Shown here in pieces: positions 1 to 34,065 of a DNA stretch of 64,000 nt. The position numbers and the translations under genes are program-made. The stretch comes from Thermococcus sp. MV5 (GTDB lineage Archaea > Methanobacteriota_B > Thermococci > Thermococcales > Thermococcaceae), in the NCBI RefSeq assembly GCF_012027425.1, contig NZ_SNUE01000003.1, positions 186,001-250,000 on the forward strand. Reading direction: 5' to 3'. The first letter of the stretch is position 1, and every line of letters starts with the position of its first letter. The notes below the pieces were generated by a model. The model was not told the DNA's origin, searched no databases, and worked only from the letters and a program-made list of their open reading frames with translations.

Positions 1-1405
1 CTTCATCCAAATCTGCAGACACCAAAAGAACAGCCTTATTCTCATTCCTAAGTTTTATCAAGTAATTTCTTATGTACTCTGTCGAAGCAACATCAACACC
101 CCTTGTAGGCTGAGAGGCTATAATGAATTCTGGTTGTTTGCTCACTTCTCTTGCCACGATAAGCTTTTGTTGATTTCCTCCACTCAAGCTCTTTGCTGGA
201 GATTCTATACTTGGAACCAAGACCTCAAAGTTCTCTACAAGTTTTGCTGCATGTTCTTTAGCTTTATCCCATCTTAGCATTCCCACGGGACCTCTAAATG
301 TGTCTCTCCAGTGAAGTCCAAGGATCGAGTTTTCAGCAACACTCATCTCGGTTACCAGCCCCATGTGGATCCTATCCTCTGGAATGTGGGCCACTCCAAG
401 ATCGTAGAGCTCTTTTGGTGGTCTTCCAGTGATGTCTTTTCCGTTAAGAATGACTTTACCTTTTGCAATTTTTCTTAATCCGCTTATGGCTTCTATGAGT
501 TCAGTTTGTCCGTTTCCTTCGACTCCTGCTATTCCAAAGATCTCCCCAGCTCTCACTTCAAATGTCAAACCCTTTACAGCATCTTGTCCCCTATCTCCTT
601 TTACCCACAAATCTTGCACTTGTAGCACTGGCTTACCGGCTTCTTTTGGGGGCTTTTCTATCTTGAGAACCACTTCTCTTCCTACCATCATTTTAGCTAA
701 TTCTTTGGGGGAGGTTTCGCTTGTATTTACAGTTCCTATTAGTTCTCCTTTTCTAAGGACTGTTACTCTATCTGTTATCTCCATAACTTCTTTGAGTTTG
801 TGGCTGATAAAGATGATCGTTTTACCTTGAGATTTTAGCTTTTTGAGTACCTCGAAAAGCTCTTTCACTTCTATTGGAGTAAGTACTGCAGTTGGCTCGT
901 CTAAAATAAGTACATCCACATCTCTGTAGAGAGTTTTTAAAATTTCAATTCTTTGTTGGACACCAACAGGGAGGGTTTCTACAGGAACATCAAGGGAAAC
1001 TTGAAAGTTTAAATCATCCATAAGCTTTTGCAATTTTTTCCTTGCTTTTTCAACATCTATTTTAGAGAAGAGACCATGACCCTCCATTCCCAGGATAATA
1101 TTGTGAAGCCCATCAAAAACATCTACCAGCGTGAAATGCTGGTGAACCATACCAATTCCATTTGCAAGAGCATCAGCGGGACTTTTAAATCTCACTTCTT
1201 TTCCGTTCACAAGTATTTTACCCTCTGTTGGATGAAGCATTCCAGAGAGTATCTTCATTAAAGTTGTTTTTCCAGCTCCATTCTCACCCAATAATCCATG
1301 AATCTCACCTTTTCTTACGGAAAAGTCAACACCTTTAAGAGCTTTTGTGCCATCTGGATATACTTTGACGATCCCTTTCATTTCAATAATTGGTACTTCT
1401 TCCAT
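1..1405 (-). CDS. ABC transporter ATPase, nucleoside/BMP type (C-terminus outside window)
   Basis: This is the energising ATPase of a BMP-type (nucleoside, simple-sugar class) importer. It starts at ATG 1403-1405 behind AGGAGGTG, and the reading frame runs open to the left window edge, so the C-terminus is missing. It reads MEEVPIIEMKGIVKVYPDGT at the start. Two ABC domains are visible. The first has Walker A GENGAGKTT and Walker B VLILDEPTA, the second has a degenerate Walker A GVEGNGQTE and signature LSGGNQQK. This tandem layout is typical of RbsA/YufO/NupO ATPases of about 500 residues. It lies 49 nt downstream of the BMP lipoprotein gene, so the two are one operon, with permeases expected beyond the window. 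Substrate is inferred from family only. Confidence 0.93.
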   Translation of the reverse strand, partial: MEEVPIIEMKGIVKVYPDGTKALKGVDFSVRKGEIHGLLGENGAGKTTLMKILSGMLHPTEGKILVNGKEVRFKSPADALANGIGMVHQHFTLVDVFDGLHNIILGMEGHGLFSKIDVEKARKKLQKLMDDLNFQVSLDVPVETLPVGVQQRIEILKTLYRDVDVLILDEPTAVLTPIEVKELFEVLKKLKSQGKTIIFISHKLKEVMEITDRVTVLRKGELIGTVNTSETSPKELAKMMVGREVVLKIEKPPKEAGKPVLQVQDLWVKGDRGQDAVKGLTFEVRAGEIFGIAGVEGNGQTELIEAISGLRKIAKGKVILNGKDITGRPPKELYDLGVAHIPEDRIHMGLVTEMSVAENSILGLHWRDTFRGPVGMLRWDKAKEHAAKLVENFEVLVPSIESPAKSLSGGNQQKLIVAREVSKQPEFIIASQPTRGVDVASTEYIRNYLIKLRNENKAVLLVSADLDE

Positions 1406-1454
1406 AGATGCACCTCCTAAAAGGTTATAAAAGTTAAAAACAAGAAAGGAAAGA

Positions 1455-2723
1455 TCAGCTGCTTTCCCATTGTTTTGCTAAGTCTTCCATTTCTTGCCAT
1501 GTTTTTGCTTCTCTTATAGCTTCGATTTGATCTTTGGTGGTTGCCATTGGGACCTTTATTTCTCCGCTTTTGATCTTCTCTTCAAGCTCTGCAACGGCTT
1601 GCCATATCCAGTCTGGAACTTGTTTTCTTGTCTCCTCAAGTTTAGCAAAGAGCTCGTCTTCACTAGCGAGTCCTAGTTCTTTGAGTTTTTGCTGTTTTGT
1701 GTCTTCTGGTAGTGAGTTAAACATCTCTTTGACTGCATCGATGGTACTTACTCCAACACCTTGCTCATTAAGCCCAAGCTCCATTATTCCACCTTGCCAG
1801 TTGCCTTTAATGGCCATTTCAACAGCCTTGTAGACACCGACGTCCACTCTCTTCATCATTGAGGCGATTATAACGCCTGGTTTAATCCAGTCTTGTGCTG
1901 AATCAACACCAACAGCAAATGGTGGACCCATTTCTTTTCCTTGGCTCTTGAGGTACTCATCAACGGCATCGAAGACACCAAGTCCAACAGCCCCGGCTAT
2001 TTGGTAAATTACCCAAGCTCCTTGTCCGAGTTGGGCTTGAGCTGCGGTCTTACCTTTTGCAGGGTCTGTGAATGAACCTGTATATGTGTAAAGAAGGTCT
2101 ATCTTTACATCATTCCCTGTCTTTTGCTTGTAATACTCCTCGGCCCACTTAATTCCGAATCTATAGCCACCCTCAAATTTGTAAAGTACTGGGATTTCAA
2201 TACCAAGAACAGCACCAACTTTATCTTTTCCATCGTTTGCGGCTATTAGACCAGCAAGGGCTCCTATTAAGGCTGACCCTTCATTTTCCTTAAATAGAAT
2301 GCTTACTACATTTGGTTTGTCTGGAATGAATCCATCAACAATAGCGAACTTTTGGTCTGGGAATTCATCTGCAACCTGCGTTACTGCATCAGTCATCATA
2401 AAACCAACGGCTATTATGAGGTTGTACTCTCCTGTTTGGGCGAGGCTTCTGAGGTTTGGTAAATAATCTGATTCTGTATTGCTTTGTACTTCCTTAAGCT
2501 CGAGGTTAAATTCTTTTGCTGCTTTGGATGCACCTAAGTAGGCCATATCATTGAAGCTTAAGTCACCTCTTCCACCAACATCATAAACTACTGCAATCTT
2601 CCCTGCGTATTGGGGAGTAGTTGTTTGTGTCTCTGTCTTCTCTCCTCCACCAATACATCCACTTATGGCAACGCTAAACAGCAAAACTCCTATCAAAAAT
2701 ACTGCTAATCCTCTATTCTTCAT
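1455..2723 (-). CDS. BMP-family substrate-binding lipoprotein
   Basis: The 422-residue extracellular binding protein of the importer has a hydrophobic signal followed by lipobox VAISGC (lipid-modified Cys) and then a short Gly/Thr-rich linker. The body has the BMP/Med periplasmic-binding fold features: VVYDVGGRGDLSFND near the N-terminus and AVGVDSAQDW near the middle, as in PnrA-like nucleoside receptors. The start is placed at ATG 2721-2723 because GGAGGT sits 7 nt upstream; an ATG 15 nt further up lies before this site. It is the first gene of the operon with the ATPase at 1-1405. Nucleoside specificity is a family inference; no ligand residues were checked. Confidence 0.92.
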   Translation of the reverse strand: MKNRGLAVFLIGVLLFSVAISGCIGGGEKTETQTTTPQYAGKIAVVYDVGGRGDLSFNDMAYLGASKAAKEFNLELKEVQSNTESDYLPNLRSLAQTGEYNLIIAVGFMMTDAVTQVADEFPDQKFAIVDGFIPDKPNVVSILFKENEGSALIGALAGLIAANDGKDKVGAVLGIEIPVLYKFEGGYRFGIKWAEEYYKQKTGNDVKIDLLYTYTGSFTDPAKGKTAAQAQLGQGAWVIYQIAGAVGLGVFDAVDEYLKSQGKEMGPPFAVGVDSAQDWIKPGVIIASMMKRVDVGVYKAVEMAIKGNWQGGIMELGLNEQGVGVSTIDAVKEMFNSLPEDTKQQKLKELGLASEDELFAKLEETRKQVPDWIWQAVAELEEKIKSGEIKVPMATTKDQIEAIREAKTWQEMEDLAKQWESS

Positions 2724-2849
2724 TAGGTCGACCTCCATAATGGGGGTTATCGTATGGGAGTGAGAACAATAGAATATATATTTTATGGTTTGAGTGTGCG
2801 ATTCTGCATGTTTTTAAAAGGATCACTTCTATTAACAAGGGGGAGTGTC

Positions 2850-3305
2850 ATGCTTAAGAAGATAGCAAATCTTGAAAGGGGTGTAGTTTTAGTTACGGGG
2901 GATGCAAAGAAGCTTGCGAGGATTTTTCTTAATGCTTGGCTTTCTAGAGGATATACGTTTCTTGTGGAGTATCTACCTTTTGAAGTTAATTACCCAGAAA
3001 ATGTTTTTATTGGGAATATAGAGGAGGGAGTAGAGTTTGATGGATATCTTATTTATTCTCTTCTTTCTAGATCAAAAATGGAGAGAAAAAAGTACTACTC
3101 TTTCATAACTGCTCGTAGGGATAGGCTTATCCTTATCTATGAACCGAAGTACTTCAAAGATTCCCTTTTCAAATATGATATTAAGGAGCTCATAGATTAT
3201 CTTGTCTCATATAAGCGGGAAACTATGGGTATGGACAGAGTTGATGTTTATCGACTTGAGGAGGGAAGGGTCATTGAAAAGAAAAGCTATGTTAGGAGAT
3301 TCTAA
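2850..3305 (+). CDS. Thermococcales conserved hypothetical protein
   Basis: A 151-residue soluble protein of unknown function. The start at 2850 is preferred because GGGGGAG precedes it and a TATA-like TTTTTAAAAG lies about 40 nt upstream, whereas the upstream in-frame start has neither. The sequence alternates short hydrophobic strands and charged helices (VVLVTGDAKKLARIFLNAW, FDGYLIYSLLSR), suggesting a Rossmann-like alpha/beta fold, possibly a degenerate RecA/KaiC-like domain without a Walker A. No catalytic motif is visible. It is transcribed divergently from the BMP operon and 70 nt ahead of the phosphohexomutase gene. Confidence 0.75.
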   Translation: MLKKIANLERGVVLVTGDAKKLARIFLNAWLSRGYTFLVEYLPFEVNYPENVFIGNIEEGVEFDGYLIYSLLSRSKMERKKYYSFITARRDRLILIYEPKYFKDSLFKYDIKELIDYLVSYKRETMGMDRVDVYRLEEGRVIEKKSYVRRF

Positions 3306-3376
3306 AAGAAATGGAATGAAAAATCTTTTAACTTTGCTTCGTATTTTTTAGTGTTAGCAATCACATGGTGATGATC

Positions 3377-4726
3377 ATGGGGAAGTATTTTGGCACAAGT
3401 GGAATAAGGGAAGTCGTTAATGAACAGCTAACTCCGGAACTTGCTTTAGGTGTTGGGAAGGCCTTAGGGACTTATTTGGGAGAAGGAAAGGTTGTTGTGG
3501 GAATGGATACTAGGACAAGCGGTGAAATGCTAAAAAATGCCATAATTTCAGGGTTGTTGAGTACTGGTATTGACGTGATTGATATTGGGCTCTCTCCCAC
3601 TCCATTGACTGGTTTTGCTATTCGGCTTTATGAAGCAGATGCTGGGGTCACGATTACAGCCTCACATAATCCTCCGCAATATAATGGTATTAAAGTATGG
3701 CAGCCAAATGGGATGGCCTATACAGGGGATATGGAAAATGAGCTTGAGAAGATCCTTGAAGAGAGGAGCTTTAAGAAAGCCCCTTGGAATGAGATTGGAA
3801 ACTTAACAACAGCCAACCCTGAAAGAGAATACATAAAAAAAGCTCTTGAGATGGTTAATCTTTCAAAGGGGTATACGGTTGTTGTTGATGCAGGCAATGG
3901 GGCGGGGGCGTTGATTTCTCCTTATCTCCAAAGAGAACTTAGAAATAAGGTTATCTCCCTTAACTCTCACCCAAGTGGATATTTCATAAGGGAACTTGAG
4001 CCGAATGCTAAAAGTCTTGAGGGACTTTCCAAGGCTGTTAAAGTCTTCAAGGCAGACGTCGGTATAGCTCATGATGGGGATGCGGATAGAATTGGGGTCG
4101 TTGATGACGAAGGTAACTTTGTGGAGTACGAGGTGATGCTCTCTCTTATAAGTGCATACATGCTTAGGAAGTTCGGAAAGGGCAGAATAATAACAACTGT
4201 GGATGCAGGCTTTGCTCTTGATGACTACGTTAAGCCTTTAGGTGGAGAGGTAATTAGGGTTAAAGTTGGGGATGTTGCCGTTGCGGAGGGAATAGTAAGA
4301 GAGAATGCTATCTTTGGGGGTGAGCCCTCCGGAACCTGGATAATTCCCCAGTGGAACTTAACTCCCGATGGGATATTTGCTGGAGCTTTGGTTTTGGAGA
4401 TGATTGACAAGCTGGGGCCTTTGAGCGAGCTCGCGAAGGAAGTTCCACGCTACGTGACGCTTAGGGCAAAGATACCTTGCCCAAACGAGAAGAAAGCAAA
4501 GGCGATGGAGCTCATAGAAAAAGAAGCACTCAAGAGATTCTCTTACAAAAGACTCATTGACATTGATGGAGTAAGAATTGAGAACGATGAGTGGTGGATT
4601 CTCTTCAGGCCGAGTGGAACAGAGCCAATAATGCGCATAACTCTAGAAGCTCATACAAAGGAAAAAGCGGAGGAACTCATGAAGAAGGCAAAAAGTCTTG
4701 TGAAAGAGGCAATAAAAGAAGCGTGA
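3377..4726 (+). CDS. Phosphohexomutase (phosphoglucosamine/phosphomannomutase family)
   Basis: A 449-residue alpha-D-phosphohexomutase that interconverts 1- and 6-phospho sugars. Family motifs are in order: N-terminal YFGTSGIRE, active-site [11 protein letters not shown] with the phosphoserine, metal-binding loop HDGDADR, sugar-binding loop GGEPSGTW, and C-terminal phosphate loop [10 protein letters not shown]. One oddity is GIRE where the family nearly always has GIRG. The start is ATG 3377 behind GGTGATGATC; two earlier in-frame starts at 3365 and 3371 overlap this site. GlmM versus ManB activity cannot be separated from sequence alone. A T-rich end follows at 4732-4750. Confidence 0.9.
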
Positions 4727-4760
4727 ATTGAATTTTTTGTGCTCTTTTTTCTGTATTTCT

Positions 4761-4793
4761 GACCTCTTCCCCGCATTAAAAGGCGAGGCTTGA
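4761..4793 (-). repeat. Solo IS200/IS605-type right-end hairpin (copy a)
   Basis: Read on the minus strand it begins AAGCCTCGCC and ends GGGGAAGAGGTCAG. This matches the right-end hairpin of the TnpB element at 51.2-51.9 kb. No transposase is adjacent. With copy b (5502-5535, opposite orientation) it brackets the flavodoxin gene, both outer ends facing away from it. Confidence 0.75.
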
Positions 4794-4931
4794 GAAGAAG
4801 AGGAATGTCAAAGTGTATTTGGATTTATGGCTCCTGCATATACAATAGGACTCATTGGGAAATCTCTTTTTTTATAAAAATACCATGTCACTACTCTGTT
4901 TATATTATTCTCGCAGTTTTTTCGTTGTGTT

Positions 4932-5438
4932 TCATCCAATCCATTCTTTTATTGTGTATTCAAGTTCTTCAGGACAGGAGGGATATAAATTTCTCTTCAA
5001 TCCATTGGCAAACCTCCTTGCTCTTTCCAAATCCTTCTCATCTGGATGTCCTTTGTTTATCCCTCCTATTTTTGCGAGCCATCCATTGGTGTCCCATCCT
5101 CTGCATGAGAACTCACCAACGATTTCAAAGTCTTTTTCTTCTAGTGCTCTCCTCAATTGTCTGTGATTATACCAACGGATATTCATTCCGGCGGTGGAAA
5201 ATATAAACGCCTTCTTTCCTTTGACTCTTGGAAGGCTATTCACAAGTTTGAAAAGAGTCCAATGGTGTCTCCACCAGTAAATTCCAGAGCCAAACCCTAT
5301 GAGATCGTAATTTAAAAGTTCTTTTGGTGTTATCCCCCAAGGTTTTGTGAGTTCTGCCTCAAGAGTTTTTGCCATGACTTTTGCGACTTTTTCAGTATTT
5401 CTGTGGTGGATTGAAACATAAATAATTAAAGTATTCAT
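4932..5438 (-). CDS. Flavodoxin-family protein
   Basis: A 168-residue flavodoxin-like electron-transfer or oxidoreductase protein. It starts with a beta strand and an FMN phosphate-loop-like segment, IIYVSIHHRNTEKVA, in place of the classic (S/T)xTGNT. Further flavodoxin-fold elements are DLIGFGSGIYWWRHH and KAFIFSTAGM. The start is ATG 5438 behind GGTGTGG. It is a single gene isolated between two outward-facing transposon-end hairpins, which may mean it arrived or was rearranged with them (inference). Redox partner unknown. Confidence 0.85.
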   Translation of the reverse strand: MNTLIIYVSIHHRNTEKVAKVMAKTLEAELTKPWGITPKELLNYDLIGFGSGIYWWRHHWTLFKLVNSLPRVKGKKAFIFSTAGMNIRWYNHRQLRRALEEKDFEIVGEFSCRGWDTNGWLAKIGGINKGHPDEKDLERARRFANGLKRNLYPSCPEELEYTIKEWIG

Positions 5439-5501
5439 ATTCCACACCTATTTATACTTCTTCATGAATTTTCTTATAGTTTGTTCTTACCTTTTTCTTT
5501 T

Positions 5502-5535
5502 GAAAGCCTCGCCTTCACGACGGGGAGGAGGTCGG
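5502..5535 (+). repeat. Solo IS200/IS605-type right-end hairpin (copy b)
   Basis: GAAAGCCTCGCCTTC, then a short loop and CGGGGAGGAGGTCGG. The CCTCGCC arm pairs with GGGGAGG apart from one G-G mismatch. It lies in the promoter-side region of both the flavodoxin gene (minus) and the methyltransferase gene (plus). Confidence 0.75.
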
Positions 5536-5593
5536 TCTCTTTAGATAATCCAAAAATTTTTAACTGAAAAAACGAGTTTTGTATGTGGTTACT

Positions 5594-6331
5594 ATGAAAA
5601 AGCACGAATGGGAAGAGTTTTTTGATAGGGAGGCTGACTACTATTTACAAGAACCCTTTACCAAATACACGAAAAAGGAAATTGATTTTTTACTGGAGGA
5701 ATTTAAACTTCCAGAAGGTGCAAAAATATTAGATGTGGGCTGTGGTGTTGGAAGACATTCTATAGAGCTTGCAAAGAGAGGATATCGTGTCACAGGGATT
5801 GATATTTCCCAGAAAATGCTTGAAAAAGCAAAAGAATGGGCCCAAAAAGAGGGTGTTGAAGTTGAATTGATAAAAGCAGATGCGACTAGATTTAAGCGTA
5901 ATGAAGAGTTTGACGCTGTAATATGTCTATGTGAGGGAGCCTTTTCGTTACTTGGTTCATCTGACGATCTGATAGAGCATGACTTGGCCATCTTAAGGAA
6001 TATATATAAATCACTGAAACTGGGAGGTAAGTTTATCCTAACAGCTCTAAGCGCGCTTTCAAGAATTAAAAAAGCTACAAATGAAGATATTACTAGTGGA
6101 GTATTTGACCCGAACACCATGACATTCTTTGAAGAACTCGAGGCACCAGATGGCACGAAAATTCCAATACGAGAACGAGTTTATGTCCCAACAGAGCTTT
6201 ATTTGATGTTTAAAATGGTTGGATTTGAAGTGAAAGCTATTTGGGGAGGGACTGCTGGGAGATGGGGGGAGAGAAAGGTAGATATGGATGACATTGAAAT
6301 AATGGTGGTGGCTGAGAAAGCTCAAAAATAG
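5594..6331 (+). CDS. Class I SAM-dependent methyltransferase
   Basis: A 245-residue methyltransferase with motif I ILDVGCGVGRHSIELA, an acidic post-I strand VTGIDIS, and FDAVICLCEGAFS at motif II. A C-terminal substrate cap follows (MTFFEEL, GFEVKAIWGG). This layout resembles small-molecule methyltransferases of the UbiE/Methyltransf_11 and _25 type. The ATG at 5594 is chosen, since the upstream TTG at 5579 has no ribosome site; spacing from the TATA-like stretch suggests a very short leader. Substrate unknown. Confidence 0.88.
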   Translation: MKKHEWEEFFDREADYYLQEPFTKYTKKEIDFLLEEFKLPEGAKILDVGCGVGRHSIELAKRGYRVTGIDISQKMLEKAKEWAQKEGVEVELIKADATRFKRNEEFDAVICLCEGAFSLLGSSDDLIEHDLAILRNIYKSLKLGGKFILTALSALSRIKKATNEDITSGVFDPNTMTFFEELEAPDGTKIPIRERVYVPTELYLMFKMVGFEVKAIWGGTAGRWGERKVDMDDIEIMVVAEKAQK

Positions 6332-6951: not shown

Positions 6952-7533
6952 TTAAATTTTTCCAGACGTTAAGGATGTTATAATGGTCTTAACTCTCTTT
7001 TTTAGATCTTCAAGAGTGCCTTCATTCACAATCAAGAAATCAGCCAGATCTTTAAGCATGCTTGTGTGATATAATTCCTCTTCTGCTTTATCTGCGTCCA
7101 AAAAATCTTCAAAACTCTTTATTACCTTGTCTTTTCCAGCACTTCTCTTTTTCAATCGTTCATACCTTATCTCAGGTCTCGCTTCTATGTATATTATGGC
7201 TCCGCCTCGTTTCTTTATAGCATCTATTTCTCCCTTTGATCTTACTCCATCTATCACTATGTTTTTACAATGTCTTCTCTTGTCTATGGCGAGTCTTATA
7301 AGAATATCCTCTCCATAGGTCTCTTTTAAGTGTTTTCCATATTCGATGAGTCTGTCTCTTGTGGGCTCACCCTTTTCTGGGACTTCAGGAAGCCAGGAAT
7401 AATCGTTTAAATTATGGGTTAGAAGGTCAATTAGCGGGTCACTACACGAAACTCTACAAAATCCTTTCTCTTCAAAAAACTTTGCAACCGTGGTTTTTCC
7501 TGCTGCAATTTTACCTACAATGCCGACTATCAT
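6952..7533 (-). CDS. UPF0200-type P-loop kinase (dephospho-CoA kinase-like)
   Basis: A 193-residue P-loop protein with Walker A GIVGKIAAGKTT at the N-terminus, followed by CSDPLIDLL and a Walker-B-like NIVIDGVRSKGEID. The LID-like YERLKKRSAGKD and overall length fit archaeal UPF0200, related to CMP/AMP and dephospho-CoA kinases. ATG 7533 is chosen because GGTGGTAAA directly precedes it; an in-frame start 33 nt upstream would lie inside the preceding gene. It overlaps that gene's region within a three-gene minus operon (8620 to 6952). Substrate unproven. Confidence 0.85.
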   Translation of the reverse strand: MIVGIVGKIAAGKTTVAKFFEEKGFCRVSCSDPLIDLLTHNLNDYSWLPEVPEKGEPTRDRLIEYGKHLKETYGEDILIRLAIDKRRHCKNIVIDGVRSKGEIDAIKKRGGAIIYIEARPEIRYERLKKRSAGKDKVIKSFEDFLDADKAEEELYHTSMLKDLADFLIVNEGTLEDLKKRVKTIITSLTSGKI

Positions 7534-7544
7534 TTTACCACCTT

Positions 7545-8345
7545 CTATCTTTTCCATGCCCACCATATAAGGTTTGCTCCATCTGTTGATTCCATTAAGC
7601 CTTCACCAACCATTTCAACGACAAAATCTATCATTGCATTCTTATCTACCCTGACAGGTCTTTCAAATCCAAAGAAATATTTTGCCTCAAAGAATCCGAT
7701 GTGAAGGAACCTAAGGGGATTAAGGAGAGCTATATCATTAAGGAGCTTGAGACCAAAAGGAAAATCAGCAATAATTATTCCGATATTCCTTTCTTGGGCA
7801 ATCCTCCTCAACTTTTCCTCATCTGGAAAGAAGAGCTCCCTAAGAAAGCCTTCTATTGGTGTGTATTCCATTTTTGGAAAGGTGTATTTAATCCCGACTA
7901 TCTCGGCTTCTAGGCCAACTTTTTCAGCAAAACCTACCATGGCTTTTGCATTGAAGCTGAGGAACACGAGAGCTCTCCCATTATTGCTAAGAGTGGACCA
8001 TTTTCTAGGAGGGAAGTTAAACTCTGCTTCTATTATAGGAGTCAGAAAGTCGAGAAGAGTGCCTTTGATTCTCCTTAAGTTCTCTTCTAGTTTTTTTCTC
8101 TTTATGATGAGATCAAGTTTTGAGTAAACGGTAACTTGTTTTATTCCAAGCTCTTCTCTGAGTTTCCCAATTACAAAGCTGTTTCCAATGATTGCACTTT
8201 TATCACTTCTATCTTTAGCGATTATAAATAATTTATCCCCTTCTTCATCATATCTTACTTCATCTATCACAAAGGGTACTATGGGAAAACCGTTATCTTT
8301 CCTTATTCTATTAATCCTCTCTGCTATTTCTTCTTTGGTAAACAT
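7545..8345 (-). CDS. Conserved hypothetical protein
   Basis: A 266-residue soluble protein that I do not recognise. An N-terminal helix (FTKEEIAERINRIRKD) is followed by alternating beta strands (FIIAKDRSDKSAIIG) and a central part with SNNGRALVFLSFNAKAMVGFA. The C-terminal part has NIGIIIADFPFGLKLL, which resembles a PP-loop/ATP-pyrophosphatase-like or USP-like alpha/beta core, although the SGGxDS motif is absent. It starts in a TAATG overlap with the stop of the gene upstream, so translation is coupled. Its start at 8345 is preferred over an upstream ATG because GGGTGAG lies just before it. Confidence 0.75.
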   Translation of the reverse strand: MFTKEEIAERINRIRKDNGFPIVPFVIDEVRYDEEGDKLFIIAKDRSDKSAIIGNSFVIGKLREELGIKQVTVYSKLDLIIKRKKLEENLRRIKGTLLDFLTPIIEAEFNFPPRKWSTLSNNGRALVFLSFNAKAMVGFAEKVGLEAEIVGIKYTFPKMEYTPIEGFLRELFFPDEEKLRRIAQERNIGIIIADFPFGLKLLNDIALLNPLRFLHIGFFEAKYFFGFERPVRVDKNAMIDFVVEMVGEGLMESTDGANLIWWAWKR

Positions 8346-8620
8346 TAACTCACCCGATAGGCTTTTGTACACTCGTAAATTTCTTGAGCGATTTTTAAGG
8401 CTTCTTCTTTGTTGTCTGTTTCTTTTACTATTATCTTCCCACTTGGGAATATGCTGATATCATATGCTTTTCTCACAAGAGCTAGAAACCTTGTTACTCT
8501 TTTTATTTGATACCCTCTCTCAGCTAGGCATTCACACACTTCTTCTAGATCAAGATCAAATTTCTCTTGAGGTGTGATGTTTATGGCCTTCATGCTTGTG
8601 CATGGTTTTGCAACTAACAT
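8345..8620 (-). CDS. Small conserved protein, first gene of three-gene operon
   Basis: A 91-residue protein. It has an alternating helix-strand pattern: DLEEVCECLAERGYQIKRV, then DISIFPSGKIIVKETDN and a closing helix EEALKIAQEIYE. The FPSGKIIVK stretch recalls the beta-saddle of TBP-like half domains, but the match is weak and only one half would be present. The start is behind GGTGGT. A perfect 10-bp dyad (8636-8663) lies over its promoter, suggesting a regulated operon with the two downstream genes. Function unknown. Confidence 0.75.
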   Translation of the reverse strand: MLVAKPCTSMKAINITPQEKFDLDLEEVCECLAERGYQIKRVTRFLALVRKAYDISIFPSGKIIVKETDNKEEALKIAQEIYECTKAYRVS

Positions 8621-8635
8621 AGAACCACCAGTAGG

Positions 8636-8663
8636 AAATTTATGAGTGTAGGTTCATAAATTT
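8636..8663. promoter_or_regulatory. Perfect 10-bp inverted repeat over operon promoter
   Basis: AAATTTATGA and TCATAAATTT are perfect inverted copies separated by 8 nt. On the minus strand each arm also provides a TATA-like AATTTATGA, 16-43 nt upstream of ATG 8620. The position fits a repressor operator overlapping the promoter of the 8620-6952 operon; the repressor is unknown. Confidence 0.6.
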
Positions 8664-8692
8664 AATTGAAGAAAAGAAAAATCCAGAAAAAT

Positions 8693-9277
8693 TCATCTTT
8701 TCCATAGTGCGAATCCTAAAACTAAGAGCACCAAAAGAGCTCCTAGAAGAGGGATAATTTTTGTTAAATCCTTGTCTTCGTTTGTGCTAACATCTTGAAC
8801 TGTTTTCTGCTCTTCGAGGTTCTGGAGGAGGAAACTTATTTGCACTTCACCTGCGGGCATTGTTATCTTGTTTCCTTCTACTTCAAGGGGTGACTCACTC
8901 ATATCTACCAAACTTGCTCCTTCTGGCAAAATTACACTTACTGGAGTTTCTGATTTTAATGAAAGAGTCCAAACTAGGCCTTCCTTAGTCATTAGATCTG
9001 GAGTGGAGTAGGTTATTTTTACTATTTGAGAATTTTGGGTGGTTATTGTGATCTCGTTTCCCTCTATGAAGTACTGGAGGGGGTTTCCATTTGCATCAGT
9101 GACAAATACATCCTCATAGTGAGAACCTAATAAAGAAACTGTAACTTGAGTTGCATAGTCATCCACAGGTACTTCGATTTCCACAGTTGCATAGCCATCT
9201 CCATAGGGTGCAATGCTTATACTCTGGGCATTCACAAGGGGAATGAAGAGTAAAAGGGCAAGTAGAGCTTTTTTCAT
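8693..9277 (-). CDS. Secreted, C-terminally membrane-anchored protein
   Basis: A 194-residue exported protein. The signal peptide KKALLALLLFIPLVNAQS is followed by an all-beta ectodomain (ISIAPYGDGYATVEIEVPVD, EITITTQNSQIVKITYS). One C-terminal transmembrane helix, IIPLLGALLVLLVLGFALWK, carries a positive tail. The architecture repeats that of the larger protein at 44684-46117. The start at 9277 follows GGAGGTG. It is followed 30 nt upstream by another secreted protein on the same strand, so they may be co-transcribed. Function unknown. Confidence 0.8.
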   Translation of the reverse strand: MKKALLALLLFIPLVNAQSISIAPYGDGYATVEIEVPVDDYATQVTVSLLGSHYEDVFVTDANGNPLQYFIEGNEITITTQNSQIVKITYSTPDLMTKEGLVWTLSLKSETPVSVILPEGASLVDMSESPLEVEGNKITMPAGEVQISFLLQNLEEQKTVQDVSTNEDKDLTKIIPLLGALLVLLVLGFALWKR

Positions 9278-29111: not shown

Positions 29112-29882
29112 ATGAGGGCATTTATTACTATGATATATAGGCAGGCAAAGCGCTTCTTTAGGGCGAGATCTAGAGTCATAGGGATGATAATCAATCCTCT
29201 TATATGGTTGATTTTCTTCGGTCTTGGTTGGAGCAAGGTTTTCGACAATCCTATGGCTAGGACAATATTTGGAGGCGTGGATTACTTAACTTTCCTGGCT
29301 CCGGGCATATTTGCTATGACTATATTTAATCAGAGTTTTGTAAGTGGGGTTAGTGTTATATGGGACAAGCAGTTTGGTTTTCTTAAGGAAATTTTGGTAG
29401 CACCAGCATCAAGAAAAGAGGCTATTGTTGGGAGAGTGACTGGAGACTCTCTCCTTACGACAGTTCAGGGCCTCATAATACTCCTCTTAACATTTCTTTT
29501 AGCAGAAAATCTTAAACTTTCTGGGATTTTGCCTGCTCTTGTAATGGGATTTCTCCTAGCAATAGCATTCTCGGGCTTTGGAACAACTCTAGCACTTAAA
29601 ATGGAGAGTCTGGAAGGATTTCAGATGATAATGATGGTTCTCATGATGCCACTCACTTTCCTTAGTGGTGCAATATATCCCATAGAGGCCATGCCTGGCT
29701 GGATGAAAGCTTTGGCATATATAAATCCACTAACTTATGCGGTTGATGGGGCCCGCTATTATCTGGTAGGATCTAATGTTACGAGATTCTCTATAACGAC
29801 TGATTGGATAGTTTTGGGATTACTTGCGTTGGTATTCCTTAGTTTTGCGATGTTAGAGTTTGAAAAGGCGACTATTGATTGA
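29112..29882 (+). CDS. ABC-2 type permease
   Basis: A 256-residue integral membrane protein with six hydrophobic segments (VIGMIINPLIWLIFFGLGW, YLTFLAPGIFAMTIF, LTTVQGLIILLLTFLLA, ILPALVMGFLLAIAFS, MVLMMPLTFLSGAIYPIEAM, TDWIVLGLLALVFLSFAML). FLSGAIYPIEAMPGWMKAL is the ABC-2 signature. GAGGAGGTGATAA precedes the ATG, 4 nt after the ATPase stop. It pairs with the DrrA-like ATPase; drug or lipid export is a family inference. The 3' end overlaps pgk by 11 nt on the other strand. Confidence 0.93.
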   Translation: MRAFITMIYRQAKRFFRARSRVIGMIINPLIWLIFFGLGWSKVFDNPMARTIFGGVDYLTFLAPGIFAMTIFNQSFVSGVSVIWDKQFGFLKEILVAPASRKEAIVGRVTGDSLLTTVQGLIILLLTFLLAENLKLSGILPALVMGFLLAIAFSGFGTTLALKMESLEGFQMIMMVLMMPLTFLSGAIYPIEAMPGWMKALAYINPLTYAVDGARYYLVGSNVTRFSITTDWIVLGLLALVFLSFAMLEFEKATID

Positions 29883-31113
29883 AATCTTTTTTATTTTTAA
29901 ATTTCTCATAACTTATTCTAAGAGCTTCTAAAACCGGGAGAGTCTTTCCTGCAAAGAACGTCAGCATTGCTCCCCCACCTGTGCTTATGTGAGAAATTCC
30001 TTTTATATTATATTGATATATACTGGCTATACTGTGCCCACCGCCCACTATAGAAAATGCGTTGCTTTTTCCTATTGCTTTAAAGACCTCAATAGTGCCT
30101 TTGGCAAATTCCTCAATCTCAAATACTCCCATTGGACCATTAGCTACTATTATGGCGGCTTCTTTTAAGATTTCACTGTATTTTTCTATTGTTCTGCTTC
30201 CAATATCCATAATGGGTCTTTCATCGAATACCCATTTTTTGTCACTTAAAAGATCTATCTCAACTCTCTCTCCTTTGTATTCTACTGCAAAATCTACAGG
30301 AGTTCGGATGTAGGGATAAAACTCATTTAAAATTTTTTCAGCTCGATCTACGAGGTTGATTAGTCCTTTCCGCTCCAAGAGACTTATGTTTGCATCTCCC
30401 AGGTCAAAGCCTTTAGCGAGAGTGAATATGTGTCCCACCAAACCTCCAGTTAAAATTAAGTCTGCCTTTCCATTTTTTAAAGCGTTTTCTGCGACATTTA
30501 ATGAATCTTCAACTTTAGCTCCACCAAGTACGTACACTTTAGGCACTTCTTCACTTTCGTAGGCTTTTGTTAGGGCTTTTATCTCTTTCTCCATTAAAAA
30601 ACCAGGTATCATGGGTTTTATCTTTGCAAAACCGACTAGTGAAGGTTGAGATCGATGAGCGGCGGCAAATGCTTCAGTTACAACATAGTCAACTAAGGGA
30701 GACAGTTTTTTAACAAAATATGTCTTTTCACATTCTTCTAATGGTCGTTGTTTGGTCTCCTCAGCTGCAAATCTGAGATTCTCAAGAATTAAAATCTCAC
30801 TTGGCTTTAGAGAGTTTATAGCATCTCTCGCACATTTTCCAAAAATGTCTTCCACATATCCCACATCCACTCCTAGAAGGGAACTCAAAATCTCAGCATG
30901 CTGTTCTGTGGTCAGGTAATCATCTTCATAGGGCTTGCTTTGATGTGTCCCTATCACTATTTTTGCTTTATGCTCTAAGAGGTAGCGTATAGTGGGCAGT
31001 ACGGCCCTAAATCTCGCGTCACTAATAATTTTTCCATCTTTTACAGGTGAGTTGAGATCCGCCCTGAGAAAAATGACCTTGTTATGATAATTGAACCCTG
31101 GTAATCTAAACAT
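29872..31113 (-). CDS. pgk: Phosphoglycerate kinase
   Basis: A 413-residue archaeal PGK that transfers phosphate between 1,3-bisphosphoglycerate and ADP/ATP; in Thermococcales it serves mainly gluconeogenesis. Markers: VIFLRADLNSPVKDGKI, KIVIGTHQSKP, LILENLRFAAEE, VLGGAKVEDSLNVAENALKN, VANGPMGVFEIEEFAKGT and the C-terminal SIVGGGHSIAS with HISTGGGAMLTFFAGK. ATG 31113 is chosen behind GGTGAGAGC; the 54-nt longer frame lacks a site. No clear TGM motif was found upstream. Confidence 0.95.
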   Translation of the reverse strand: MFRLPGFNYHNKVIFLRADLNSPVKDGKIISDARFRAVLPTIRYLLEHKAKIVIGTHQSKPYEDDYLTTEQHAEILSSLLGVDVGYVEDIFGKCARDAINSLKPSEILILENLRFAAEETKQRPLEECEKTYFVKKLSPLVDYVVTEAFAAAHRSQPSLVGFAKIKPMIPGFLMEKEIKALTKAYESEEVPKVYVLGGAKVEDSLNVAENALKNGKADLILTGGLVGHIFTLAKGFDLGDANISLLERKGLINLVDRAEKILNEFYPYIRTPVDFAVEYKGERVEIDLLSDKKWVFDERPIMDIGSRTIEKYSEILKEAAIIVANGPMGVFEIEEFAKGTIEVFKAIGKSNAFSIVGGGHSIASIYQYNIKGISHISTGGGAMLTFFAGKTLPVLEALRISYEKFKNKKDFNQ

Positions 31114-31302
31114 GCTCTCACCTGATTCTTGTAACTTTTGGGGAGTTAAAAAGGTTATTTTAAACACTTATAGTGGTGATGTATGAGGTATTTGGTTCTT
31201 TAATTTTAGATGAAAACATGAGAGGTTGGAAAATGGCAAAAGGGATTTATATTATAATTACTCTATTATTTTTAGGTATGCGAGTTAATTGGATGTGATA
31301 TT

Positions 31303-33453
31303 ATGAAGTGGAATTTAGAGATCTTACAAGAGGCGCCTCATGAAACGCTTATCAAAACTCTGGTAAACTTGCTAGAACTGATGGGGTTTAGGAATGTGGA
31401 AATGGTGGATAGCCCAGAAGAGTGGGGAATAGATATTCTCGCTCTTAGGGATGATCCTATCGCGGGATTTGAAAAATATGTAATAAAAGTAAAATCAGGA
31501 GCTTTAACGTCTTCTCAAGATATTGAGAATTTTAATGAAGCCATAGAGAGAGCAAAGGCCGATAAGGGAATTTTCGTCTCAATAAATGGATATACTAAAG
31601 ATGCCAAACTTGTGGTTGGGAAGGAATACAAAGGAAGGATAATCATATGGGATGGCGAAAAGCTTGTTGAAGATTTAAACGACAAAAAAGTACCAGTGAG
31701 TGAAGACCTACTCAAAAAAATCAAGAGAAAAAAAGAAGAGGAAAAATTGGAAGAGAAGCGAAAAGGTGTTCTAAAGGTAATACGACTAGATACTCCACTT
31801 TTGTACTCTTTCTCTCCAGATAAAGTTTTTGAACAATTATCCTCATTACTTGAGAAAAAGTATAAAATAAAGAGAGAAGATATTATTCTAAAGACCTTGA
31901 TTTTAGAAGCTTCAACGGCTTATATCTTCTCTTGGTCAGCTCTGGTGGAGGATACAAAAGACAAGGCTGTAATATTTTCTAAGGATGAAATACTGACCTT
32001 TGTGAGTAAAGACGATGAATTAGACAAGAAAGTATCTAGGGCCCTTTTAGAGAGTGGATCTGTTATTAAGGCGACAGAGATAAGGATAATTGAGCCATTA
32101 AGCCCAAATGAGGCGGTTTTATTGGTTAAGTCCAGACTTGCAGAGGATCTAAAAGTCTCTCAAAGTAGTGTTATTTTACATTCTAGGAAGAAAGTGTATA
32201 TTCCTAAAAGAGTATTACTGGAATTGCAAGTTGGAGTAAATTCCGCAAGGGGGGAAGTTGACCTTAAAAGCAAAGAGGCTAGGGTTGAAATAGAACCTCT
32301 TCCAAAGGAGAAGTTAATTGAAATTGCCAAGGAGGAGTGCATGAATTTACTTGGGGAAGAACTTAAGGAGATTTCATTTGAACCAAAAGAGAATGTGGCT
32401 ATAATAAATGGTCAAGTTAGCAGGTTCCTTTTTGGTGCAGCTGTTCATATATATAGTGGAAGGGTTTTAAAGAGAAAATCGAAGATAAAGAGAGATGCAA
32501 TTCTCTCTGAAGTCTCAAAGAAATATCCCGGAGGGAAAATTATTTTTTTTACTGAAAAAGAGGATAAAGCAATTATTGATGTGCTAGCACCTGAGGGTAT
32601 TGTAGTTTTGGAATTTAACTTGGAAACGGGAGCCTATGTGGTCAAAGAAAAGCTTGTCCATCCATATAGTCTGGCGAAAATAGCGAAAGATCTTATTGAA
32701 GCCAATTTTGATATAAAAGACCTAGAACTTAGTGATTTCAAGGTTCGCGATCATAAGAACCTAGAACTACTCCTTAAAAGTGAAGATGGAAAAGTTTTGG
32801 TAAAGGTCGATGGAAAGACAGGAGATATAATGGATTACTTTGTGGAAATTACTCCTGAAAAAGCTGAAAGAATAATCTCGAAAAAATATCCTGACTGGCG
32901 AATAAAGAAAATAGAAGAATTAAAAGATAGCTATAAGATAGAACTCGAAAATGACAGACTTTTACTAAAACTCTCTCTTGGTAAAGATGGGAAACTACTA
33001 ACAGAAGTCGATAAATATTTGAAAGAAGATGTTGTGAAGAAAATCGTGGAGGAGTTCTTAGAGGAGAAAGGAATCACTGCAGATATTAAAGAGTTAGAGC
33101 TTGATGAAAATTGGAAGGTCAAATTTGCGGGTAAAGAACGGGTGGGGGAGATTCTCATAGAACGAGTTTCAGGGAGAGTCTTAAAGAGTGATATTTTCCT
33201 AACAGAATTTATAATTGAAGAAACTTATCAGGCCCATGTTTCAGAGAAGTTCGCTGAGAAAAATCCGAAAACAGAAACAATAATAGTTCACAAGGAAAGA
33301 GGGTATGCAATTATAAGGCTTTCTGGAGATAATGGGTTTTATTATGCAAAAGTTGATCTTCGTACAGGTAAAATCTTAAAAGAGGACATGGTATCAAAGA
33401 AAGGGTTAAAGGCAAAAATAAAGAAACTCCAGCTGGATGCAAAGTACAAGTGA
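31303..33453 (+). CDS. Mrr-like nuclease domain fused to tandem PepSY-like repeats
   Basis: A 716-residue protein. Residues 1-130 resemble the Mrr restriction-endonuclease fold: helix PHETLIKTLVNLLELMGF, then WGIDILALRDD with Asp44, and VIKVKSG with Lys64. The usual Gln/Glu of the catalytic (E/Q)xK is Lys62 here, so nuclease activity is doubtful. A charged linker (150-156) follows. From about 160 to the end come some seven units of 60-75 residues with the pattern helix + KKYP + beta + (V)D..TG.I, e.g. ISKKYPDWRIKKIEELKDSY, VKVDGKTGDIMDYFVEITPE and AKVDLRTGKILKEDMV, which look like PepSY domains. No signal peptide. Divergent from pgk; monocistronic. Function unknown. Confidence 0.8.
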   Translation: MKWNLEILQEAPHETLIKTLVNLLELMGFRNVEMVDSPEEWGIDILALRDDPIAGFEKYVIKVKSGALTSSQDIENFNEAIERAKADKGIFVSINGYTKDAKLVVGKEYKGRIIIWDGEKLVEDLNDKKVPVSEDLLKKIKRKKEEEKLEEKRKGVLKVIRLDTPLLYSFSPDKVFEQLSSLLEKKYKIKREDIILKTLILEASTAYIFSWSALVEDTKDKAVIFSKDEILTFVSKDDELDKKVSRALLESGSVIKATEIRIIEPLSPNEAVLLVKSRLAEDLKVSQSSVILHSRKKVYIPKRVLLELQVGVNSARGEVDLKSKEARVEIEPLPKEKLIEIAKEECMNLLGEELKEISFEPKENVAIINGQVSRFLFGAAVHIYSGRVLKRKSKIKRDAILSEVSKKYPGGKIIFFTEKEDKAIIDVLAPEGIVVLEFNLETGAYVVKEKLVHPYSLAKIAKDLIEANFDIKDLELSDFKVRDHKNLELLLKSEDGKVLVKVDGKTGDIMDYFVEITPEKAERIISKKYPDWRIKKIEELKDSYKIELENDRLLLKLSLGKDGKLLTEVDKYLKEDVVKKIVEEFLEEKGITADIKELELDENWKVKFAGKERVGEILIERVSGRVLKSDIFLTEFIIEETYQAHVSEKFAEKNPKTETIIVHKERGYAIIRLSGDNGFYYAKVDLRTGKILKEDMVSKKGLKAKIKKLQLDAKYK

Positions 33454-34065
33454 TTAGGTCATTAAGAGGCTTTCGATGAGCTTTATAGCTTCTACTATTT
33501 TTGTTTCTGGTACATCTTCTTCGGGTAACTCTAAATTTATTACAAGCCGTTCTTCTTGCCCTTCTTCGTCTAGTCCATAGACTTCGAGCTCTTCAATGTC
33601 TACATCTTCAAAGAAGTTTTCTATTTCAGGCCCAATGACCTTTTTGTCGTTTCCATAGACTTCCACTCTAATAACGTCATCCTTTGAGGATGCCATAACT
33701 GCTATTTCATAACCTCCAACTTTTTTTGTGAACTTTATCATATTTCCGTATCCTAAAACCTCTTCACTAAACCCAAGTTTCTTCATAACACTTCTCATTC
33801 TCTCAATTTTTGCTTTCATCCTATTCAACAAGCGGTCTCTCAACTTATAACTCTCTTCTAGGGCTTTTTTCATACCCTCACCAGCGTTTTCAATCTCGCC
33901 TTCCCATATTCCAATAAGCTTTATGCCAGAAGAGGCTGGTCTAAGCTCAATTTTTAAACTCTCTATGTCAAAATCCTTCAAATCCTCAATCCTAAGCTCA
34001 CTTAGGTTTAGTATATCAAATTCGATTCTAACTAGATTTCCAAAAGCTTTCCCTTTAAATTTCAA
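33454..34065 (-). CDS. Thermococcales conserved hypothetical protein
   Basis: A 203-residue acidic soluble protein with alternating beta and helices: RIEFDILNLSELRIEDLKDF, a central basic helix RDRLLNRMKAKIERMRSVMK, then GYEIAVMASSKDDVIRVEVY and an acidic C-terminus. No motif recognised. The start is TTG 34065 behind GGTGATGCCCT. Its stop adjoins the stop of the Mrr-PepSY gene (convergent, no gap). TATA-like TTTTTAAAC lies upstream. Function unknown. Confidence 0.72.
   Translation of the reverse strand: MKFKGKAFGNLVRIEFDILNLSELRIEDLKDFDIESLKIELRPASSGIKLIGIWEGEIENAGEGMKKALEESYKLRDRLLNRMKAKIERMRSVMKKLGFSEEVLGYGNMIKFTKKVGGYEIAVMASSKDDVIRVEVYGNDKKVIGPEIENFFEDVDIEELEVYGLDEEGQEERLVINLELPEEDVPETKIVEAIKLIESLLMT

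What the first reader, a model, noticed from the sequence alone, without database searches (positions are those of the whole stretch)
31303..33453. Mrr-type nuclease fold fused to a long array of PepSY-like domains
The N-terminal Mrr-like domain keeps Asp44 and Lys64 but has Lys62 where Gln/Glu is expected, then about seven PepSY-like units fill 550 residues. PepSY domains are usually extracytoplasmic, while this protein has no signal, so the pairing is surprising. It may be a modified-DNA or stress sensor, or a defence protein in which the repeats bind a trigger.
Basis: partly seen in the sequence, partly recalled or inferred. Interest (0 to 1): 0.68.

Follow-up and report, generated by a model that had tools for sequence, protein, structure and literature searches.

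The report
Dead Mrr nuclease with PepSY array
A heat-loving archaeon and its family carry an intracellular protein in which a restriction-enzyme-like head has lost its cutting residues and is joined to a row of eight small PepSY-type domains that normally work outside cells, so it looks like a binding scaffold rather than a DNA-cutting defence enzyme.

Summary
ORF 31303-33453 (+, 716 aa) is a real gene: an Mrr_cat domain (Pfam E 1.9e-15) followed by a PepSY-like array. A confident AlphaFold2 model (mean pLDDT 89) shows eight helix-plus-sheet units (seven canonical, one diverged), not seven, plus a conserved basic C-terminal helix. A two-unit model finds PepSY/BLIP-like structures (4exr, 4k61, 4fr9, YpeB 5boi) in the PDB. 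No signal peptide or membrane segment was found.

The interpretation needs correction. In 42 orthologues the Q/E of the Mrr PD-QxK site is never present (K/A/S/L/R), the catalytic Lys is His in 27, and the motif-I Glu is hydrophobic in all. A paralogous subfamily (14 sequences) has also lost the Asp. The head is nevertheless under purifying selection (dN/dS mostly 0.02-0.24). It is best read as a pseudonuclease.

The family is confined to Thermococcaceae (64 of 94 genomes; none of 21 others; no phage, plasmid or viral relatives). It sits between pgk and a core gene, tracks pgk in divergence (r = 0.91), and is missing as a single gene in many species, without defence neighbours. Most likely role: a cytosolic scaffold/adaptor with unknown ligand. 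Interest is moderate.

The parts
31303..33453 (+). Whole gene, 716 aa: pseudo-Mrr head, helical linker, eight PepSY-like units, basic C-terminal helix
   Evidence: orthologues with the same start (invariant M1, W3)
31246..31254 (+). Possible archaeal TATA element TTTATATTA, with an A/G-rich BRE-like stretch just upstream
   Evidence: read by eye; not tested statistically
31291..31299 (+). Possible ribosome-binding site GGATGTGAT, 3 nt before the ATG
   Evidence: read by eye; not tested statistically
31303..31683 (+). Residues 1-127: Mrr_cat (PD-(D/E)xK) head with degenerate active site: I17, D44, K62, K64; D44 is the only core catalytic residue kept in nearly all orthologues
   Evidence: Pfam; model; residue tallies; contrast with QxK-bearing Mrr proteins of the same class
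31684..31770 (+). Residues 128-156: charged, poorly conserved helical linker
   Evidence: mean column conservation 0.42, the lowest of all segments
31771..32094 (+). Residues 157-264: unit R1, diverged, long strand and an extra helix (238-249); invariant L162, P165-L167, Y207, W211
32095..32301 (+). Residues 265-333: PepSY-like unit R2
   Evidence: repeat profile hit E 2.8e-8 (this unit was among the profile's rows)
32302..32487 (+). Residues 334-395: PepSY-like unit R3
32488..32658 (+). Residues 396-452: PepSY-like unit R4 (R4-R6 is the strongest unit-unit match, HHalign probability 88.5%)
32659..32850 (+). Residues 453-516: PepSY-like unit R5
32851..33021 (+). Residues 517-573: PepSY-like unit R6 (Pfam PepSY_like 515-566, E 3e-4, below cut-off)
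33022..33204 (+). Residues 574-634: PepSY-like unit R7
33205..33402 (+). Residues 635-700: PepSY-like unit R8 (Pfam PepSY 664-694, E 4.8e-4, below cut-off)
33403..33450 (+). Residues 701-716: basic C-terminal helix ending in a penultimate Tyr invariant in the main family; most conserved segment (mean column conservation 0.76, mean charge +3.5)
29872..31167 (-). pgk (phosphoglycerate kinase), divergent neighbour; the true start may lie downstream of the listed one
   Evidence: Pfam PGK 1.9e-112; synteny
33454..34065 (-). Convergent 203-aa neighbour with no Pfam match; a core gene (91 of 94 Thermococcaceae genomes), not a specific partner

Best explanation
It is a cytosolic, non-catalytic scaffold or adaptor protein of Thermococcaceae. 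SHOWN: an Mrr-type PD-(D/E)xK fold whose catalytic set has decayed but which is still under purifying selection; eight tandem PepSY/BLIP-fold units; no export or membrane signal; one dispensable gene at a core locus, inherited mainly vertically; a paralogous subfamily of the same architecture with an even more decayed head. INFERRED: the head no longer cuts but acts as a binding or assembly module (a protein partner, or a nucleic-acid feature held without cleavage); the PepSY-like units, whose relatives bind proteins (peptidases, sensor kinases) or metals, form an extended arm that holds one or more client proteins; the conserved basic C-terminal helix docks a further partner. The clients are unknown.
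For: Active-site loss: of 42 non-redundant orthologues, position 62 is K18/A20/L2/S1/R1 and never Q or E; position 64 is K15/H27; position 44 is D39/E3; position 17, where the motif-I Glu of three of four aligned class Mrr proteins lies, is always hydrophobic. Independent Mrr proteins in the same class keep D...QxK. EcoKMrr is described as PD-QxK (PMC12707154). Selection: dN/dS in the head is 0.02-0.24 in all but one of the pairs (one is 0 on few changes), the same range as the array. Paralogue heads lost D44 and the FTKDA loop yet remain homologous (HHalign 98.5%, E 3.7e-15). Fold. Cytosolic. Inheritance and locus. Known PepSY roles: DbfQ binds a sensor kinase domain; others are linked to metal binding or peptidase inhibition (PMC12714742).
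Against: No ligand, partner or phenotype is known. The 15 K64 sequences, including this window's, keep D44 (or E44) and K64, so residual or altered activity is not excluded. The near-neutral head (mean charge -0.5) weakens nucleic-acid binding specifically. pTM of the full-chain model is 0.52, so the relative placement of domains is not known.
Confidence: 0.55

Rival explanations
1. It is an anti-virus or anti-plasmid sensor: the Mrr head recognises foreign or modified DNA and the PepSY-like array binds a trigger or effector.
For: Mrr_cat homology to type IV restriction enzymes; PADLOC PDC-S02 (E 4.2e-11) and mREase_IV (E 3.4e-5) hits on the head; resemblance to NACHT-associated inactive REase, below cut-off; patchy presence (64/94) with pseudogenes.
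Against: Vertical co-divergence with pgk (r = 0.91), fixed core locus flanked by housekeeping genes, no viral, phage or plasmid homologue, no NTPase or effector domain in the chain or next to it.
Confidence: 0.15
2. It is an active nuclease with a rearranged site (D44 with K62/K64 or H64), the array giving substrate or partner specificity.
For: Position 44 is D or E in 42/42, position 33 is E or D in 42/42, position 14 is acidic in 41/42, and position 64 is always K or H.
Against: Motif-I Glu and motif-III Q/E are absent from all 42, the general-base Lys is His in 27, and the paralogues lose D44 and the Lys as well while keeping the architecture.
Confidence: 0.12
3. The PepSY-like array is an intracellular peptidase inhibitor or chaperone-like clamp, and the Mrr-like head is merely a dimerisation cap.
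For: PepSY modules are linked to peptidase propeptides and inhibition (Pfam description; Yeats et al. 2004 as cited in PMC12714742); the unit profile's weak PDB hits include an M4 peptidase PepSY and BLIP-like periplasmic proteins; the basic C-terminal helix ends in an invariant penultimate Tyr.
Against: No protease gene is linked in the neighbourhoods examined; the tail lacks the hydrophobic residue of the proteasome-docking HbYX motif (KYK/RYK in almost all); no inhibition data.
Confidence: 0.15

Closest known systems
Mrr_cat (PF04471), type IV restriction endonucleases such as EcoKMrr
   Same: Fold order, D44 and the FTkdA and WDG segments seen in other Mrr-domain proteins; Pfam E 1.9e-15
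   Different: No Q of PD-QxK, no motif-I Glu, catalytic Lys often His; no N-terminal winged helix; carries a C-terminal PepSY-like array
NACHT-associated inactive restriction endonuclease 1 (PF22722)
   Same: Degenerate REase-fold domain in a large chain; 20 of 21 family members match at E<=0.01
   Different: Score in the window protein is below the curated cut-off (23 against 27 bits); no NACHT ATPase
PepSY / PepSY_like (PF03413, PF11396), e.g. YpeB C-terminal domain (5boi), CD1622 lipoprotein (4exr), BLIP-like BF1215 (4fr9)
   Same: Helix followed by a four-stranded sheet, 'DGkTGdI'-type hairpin; top Foldseek hits
   Different: Eight units in one chain, apparently cytosolic, fused to a nuclease fold; the cited relatives are periplasmic, lipoprotein or extracytoplasmic; per-unit sequence scores in the window copy are below Pfam cut-offs

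Membership tests
Mrr-type PD-(D/E)xK nuclease (fold) | Mrr_cat sequence profile and alpha-beta core | tested here: met
   57.4 bits against cut-off 21; predicted element order H13-26, E30-34, E45-51, E55-64, H71-83, E88-93, H99-108, E113-117
Mrr-type nuclease (active enzyme) | Catalytic Asp | tested here: met
   Position 44: D39, E3 of 42 orthologues; lost in all 14 paralogues
Mrr-type nuclease (active enzyme) | Q/E-x-K motif | tested here: not met
   Position 62 never Q or E in 42; position 64 K15/H27; true Mrr of the same class keep QxK
Mrr-type nuclease (active enzyme) | Motif-I Glu in the first core helix | tested here: not met
   Position 17 I/V/A/L/M in 42/42, Glu in 3 of 4 aligned class Mrr proteins
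Mrr-type nuclease (active enzyme) | DNA cleavage in vitro | not testable with these tools
   needs biochemistry
PepSY-like domain | Helix plus four-stranded antiparallel sheet fold | tested here: met
   DSSP of models; Foldseek hits 4exr, 4k61, 4fr9, 5boi
PepSY-like domain | Sequence profile above curated cut-off | tested here: not met
   Window copy 20.8/24 and 21.5/28.3 bits; orthologues reach E 7.8e-9
PepSY-like domain | Extracytoplasmic location (usual) | tested here: not met
   No hydrophobic N-terminal or membrane segment in any relative
Anti-phage defence system | Defence-island context or mobility | tested here: not met
   Core pgk locus, vertical divergence, no viral or plasmid relatives
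NACHT-associated iREase (PF22722) | Score over cut-off and NACHT partner | tested here: not met
   23 against 27 bits and no NACHT match
Proteasome-docking HbYX C-terminus | Hydrophobic-Tyr-X at the C-terminus | tested here: not met
   Tails are KYK/RYK in nearly all; IYK only once

The most novel reading that the evidence does not exclude
An archaeal family in which a dead restriction-enzyme head was recruited as a sensor or tether and coupled to an intracellular eight-unit PepSY arm, i.e. a use of PepSY arrays as cytoplasmic client-binding scaffolds for an unknown nucleic-acid- or protein-linked process in Thermococcales.
Probability: 0.3. Interest if true: 0.6.

Novelty: new variant of a known kind. 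Interest (0 to 1): 0.43.

Why it matters
Genome annotation by Mrr_cat would call these proteins 'restriction endonuclease', yet none of the 42 orthologues examined keeps the known catalytic set. They should be re-annotated. The family also shows a PepSY array inside the cell, which would widen what PepSY modules are thought to do, and it gives a clean single-gene target in genetically tractable Thermococcus: it is dispensable in nature, with many natural gene-free relatives.

Tried and rejected
Full-chain Foldseek against the PDB gave beta-propeller peptidases at TM 0.07-0.10, an artefact of repeated beta sheets; the two-unit model was used instead. The convergent neighbour (33454-34065) was considered as a partner and rejected: it is present in 91/94 genomes, with or without this gene. 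The own-genome second PepSY hit (E 0.029) lies in a phosphatase-like ORF with HAD-type motifs and is spurious. HbYX proteasome docking: tail not hydrophobic. NCBIfam FabT match (17.6 against a cut-off of 200 bits) is chance. A weak profile match to MDY2 ubiquitin-like structures (E>0.4) was not pursued. Paralogue neighbourhoods are conserved housekeeping loci and gave no functional lead. Literature searches for Mrr+PepSY in Thermococcus found nothing.

Full report
The finding is a single gene, window 31303-33453 on the plus strand, 716 codons, in a 1.98-Mb archaeal genome. Its relatives place it among the Thermococci: the two named loci at 72% identity are titled 'Thermococci archaeon'. The start codon is supported by invariant M1 and W3 across orthologues. 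By eye there is a TATA-like TTTATATTA at 31246-31254 and a GGATGTGAT ribosome-binding-site-like stretch just before the ATG, so the gene probably has its own promoter.

N-terminal head. Pfam Mrr_cat matches residues 12-123 at E 1.9e-15, well over its cut-off, and the AlphaFold2 model gives the expected element order with high confidence. Across 42 non-redundant orthologues, position 44 is D39/E3. Position 62 is K, A, L, S or R and never Q or E. Position 64 is K in 15 and H in 27. Position 17, where three of four aligned Mrr proteins from the same class have the motif-I Glu, is hydrophobic in all 42. Those Mrr proteins keep QxK, and the literature describes EcoKMrr as PD-QxK (PMC12707154). On a tree the K64 sequences form one group and the H64 sequences surround it, needing one change between them. 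A second subfamily, found in one genus only (14 sequences aligned), also lost D44 and the FTKDA segment, but its head is still homologous (HHalign 98.5%). The head's dN/dS is as low as that of the rest (0.02-0.24 in nearly all pairs). The combination of decayed catalytic set and strong constraint is the signature of a pseudonuclease kept for another function.

Array. The full-chain model (mean pLDDT 89.4, pTM 0.52) shows a charged helical linker and then eight helix-plus-sheet units: a diverged R1 (157-264) and R2-R8 (265-700), then a C-terminal helix. A two-unit model of R5-R6 (pLDDT 89.6, pTM 0.77) has as its leading PDB matches 4exr, DUF2874 proteins, the BLIP-like 4fr9 and the YpeB C-terminal domain 5boi. 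E-values are modest (4e-4 to 1e-2), and unrelated beta-propellers appear among and below them, so the structural match is supportive rather than overwhelming. It agrees with sequence: 14 of 21 family members match Pfam PepSY at E<=0.01, best 7.8e-9, and the unit profile's best weak PDB hits include periplasmic BLIP-like and PepSY-M4 entries. Units resemble each other beyond shuffled controls in 19 of 28 comparisons. No other array was found in the window's genome or in 38 genomes without this gene; the search does find seven units of this protein, so it works. No signal peptide or membrane helix was found in any member.

Distribution and context. Orthologues or paralogues occur in 64 of 94 Thermococcaceae genomes and in none of 21 other genomes of the phylum sample. 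There are no relatives in phage, plasmid or IMG/VR collections at the sensitivity used. The usual place is between pgk and a convergent 203-aa core gene. In eleven genomes of four genera those two genes are adjacent with the gene missing, and broken copies occur in several species. Where pgk, the gene and the neighbour were all present (13 genomes), its divergence tracks pgk (r = 0.91), about three times faster. This is a dispensable, fairly fast-evolving, mostly vertically inherited gene, unlike a typical mobile defence gene. In a few species it has moved.

Mechanism. I commit to a cytosolic pseudonuclease scaffold: the head as a binding or assembly module, the array as a client-binding arm, the basic conserved C-terminal helix as a further contact. 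Shown: anatomy, active-site decay, constraint, location class, inheritance. Inferred: binding function, clients. Nucleic-acid binding by the head is possible but not favoured by its near-neutral charge. Known PepSY proteins bind a sensor kinase domain or are linked to metals and peptidase inhibition (PMC12714742), which is why a protein-client role is preferred.

Comparison and novelty. It is a member of the Mrr fold family but fails the tests for an active Mrr enzyme. It has the PepSY fold but not the usual location. Inactive REase domains are known from conflict systems (PMC10853773), but the defence context is absent here. No paper on the Mrr-PepSY pairing was found in the open-access library. 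Whether the same fusion occurs outside the groups searched was not established. I rate it a new variant of a known kind, of moderate interest.

Noticed in passing
G077:C1:101909-104019, G102:C151:3715-5429, G088:C1:511408-513010, G069:C1:842124-844255: Broken copies (stops, split frames) of the same gene or its paralogue in several Thermococcaceae, and a copy split near codon 449 in G005, suggesting ongoing gene loss.
   Followed up: partly
L045 (G013), about 236-6231: In one genome the moved copy lies near a type III CRISPR-Cas-like cluster (recognised by eye from protein starts; not tested). No other neighbourhood examined shows this.
   Followed up: no
L044 (G030), gene at 7416-8711: In one genome the gene is followed, on the same strand and overlapping by a few bases, by an HD-domain phosphohydrolase-like gene (recognised by eye).
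   Followed up: no
L042, L112-L115: The paralogous subfamily lies in a conserved gene order after an ArsA/Get3-like ATPase gene, mostly with an AbrB-VapC-like pair between, then a hydrolase gene, and next to purA (names by eye).
   Followed up: partly
window 33454-34065 (-): Universal Thermococcaceae 203-aa protein with no Pfam match and high conservation (55-77% identity between genera); function unknown.
   Followed up: partly
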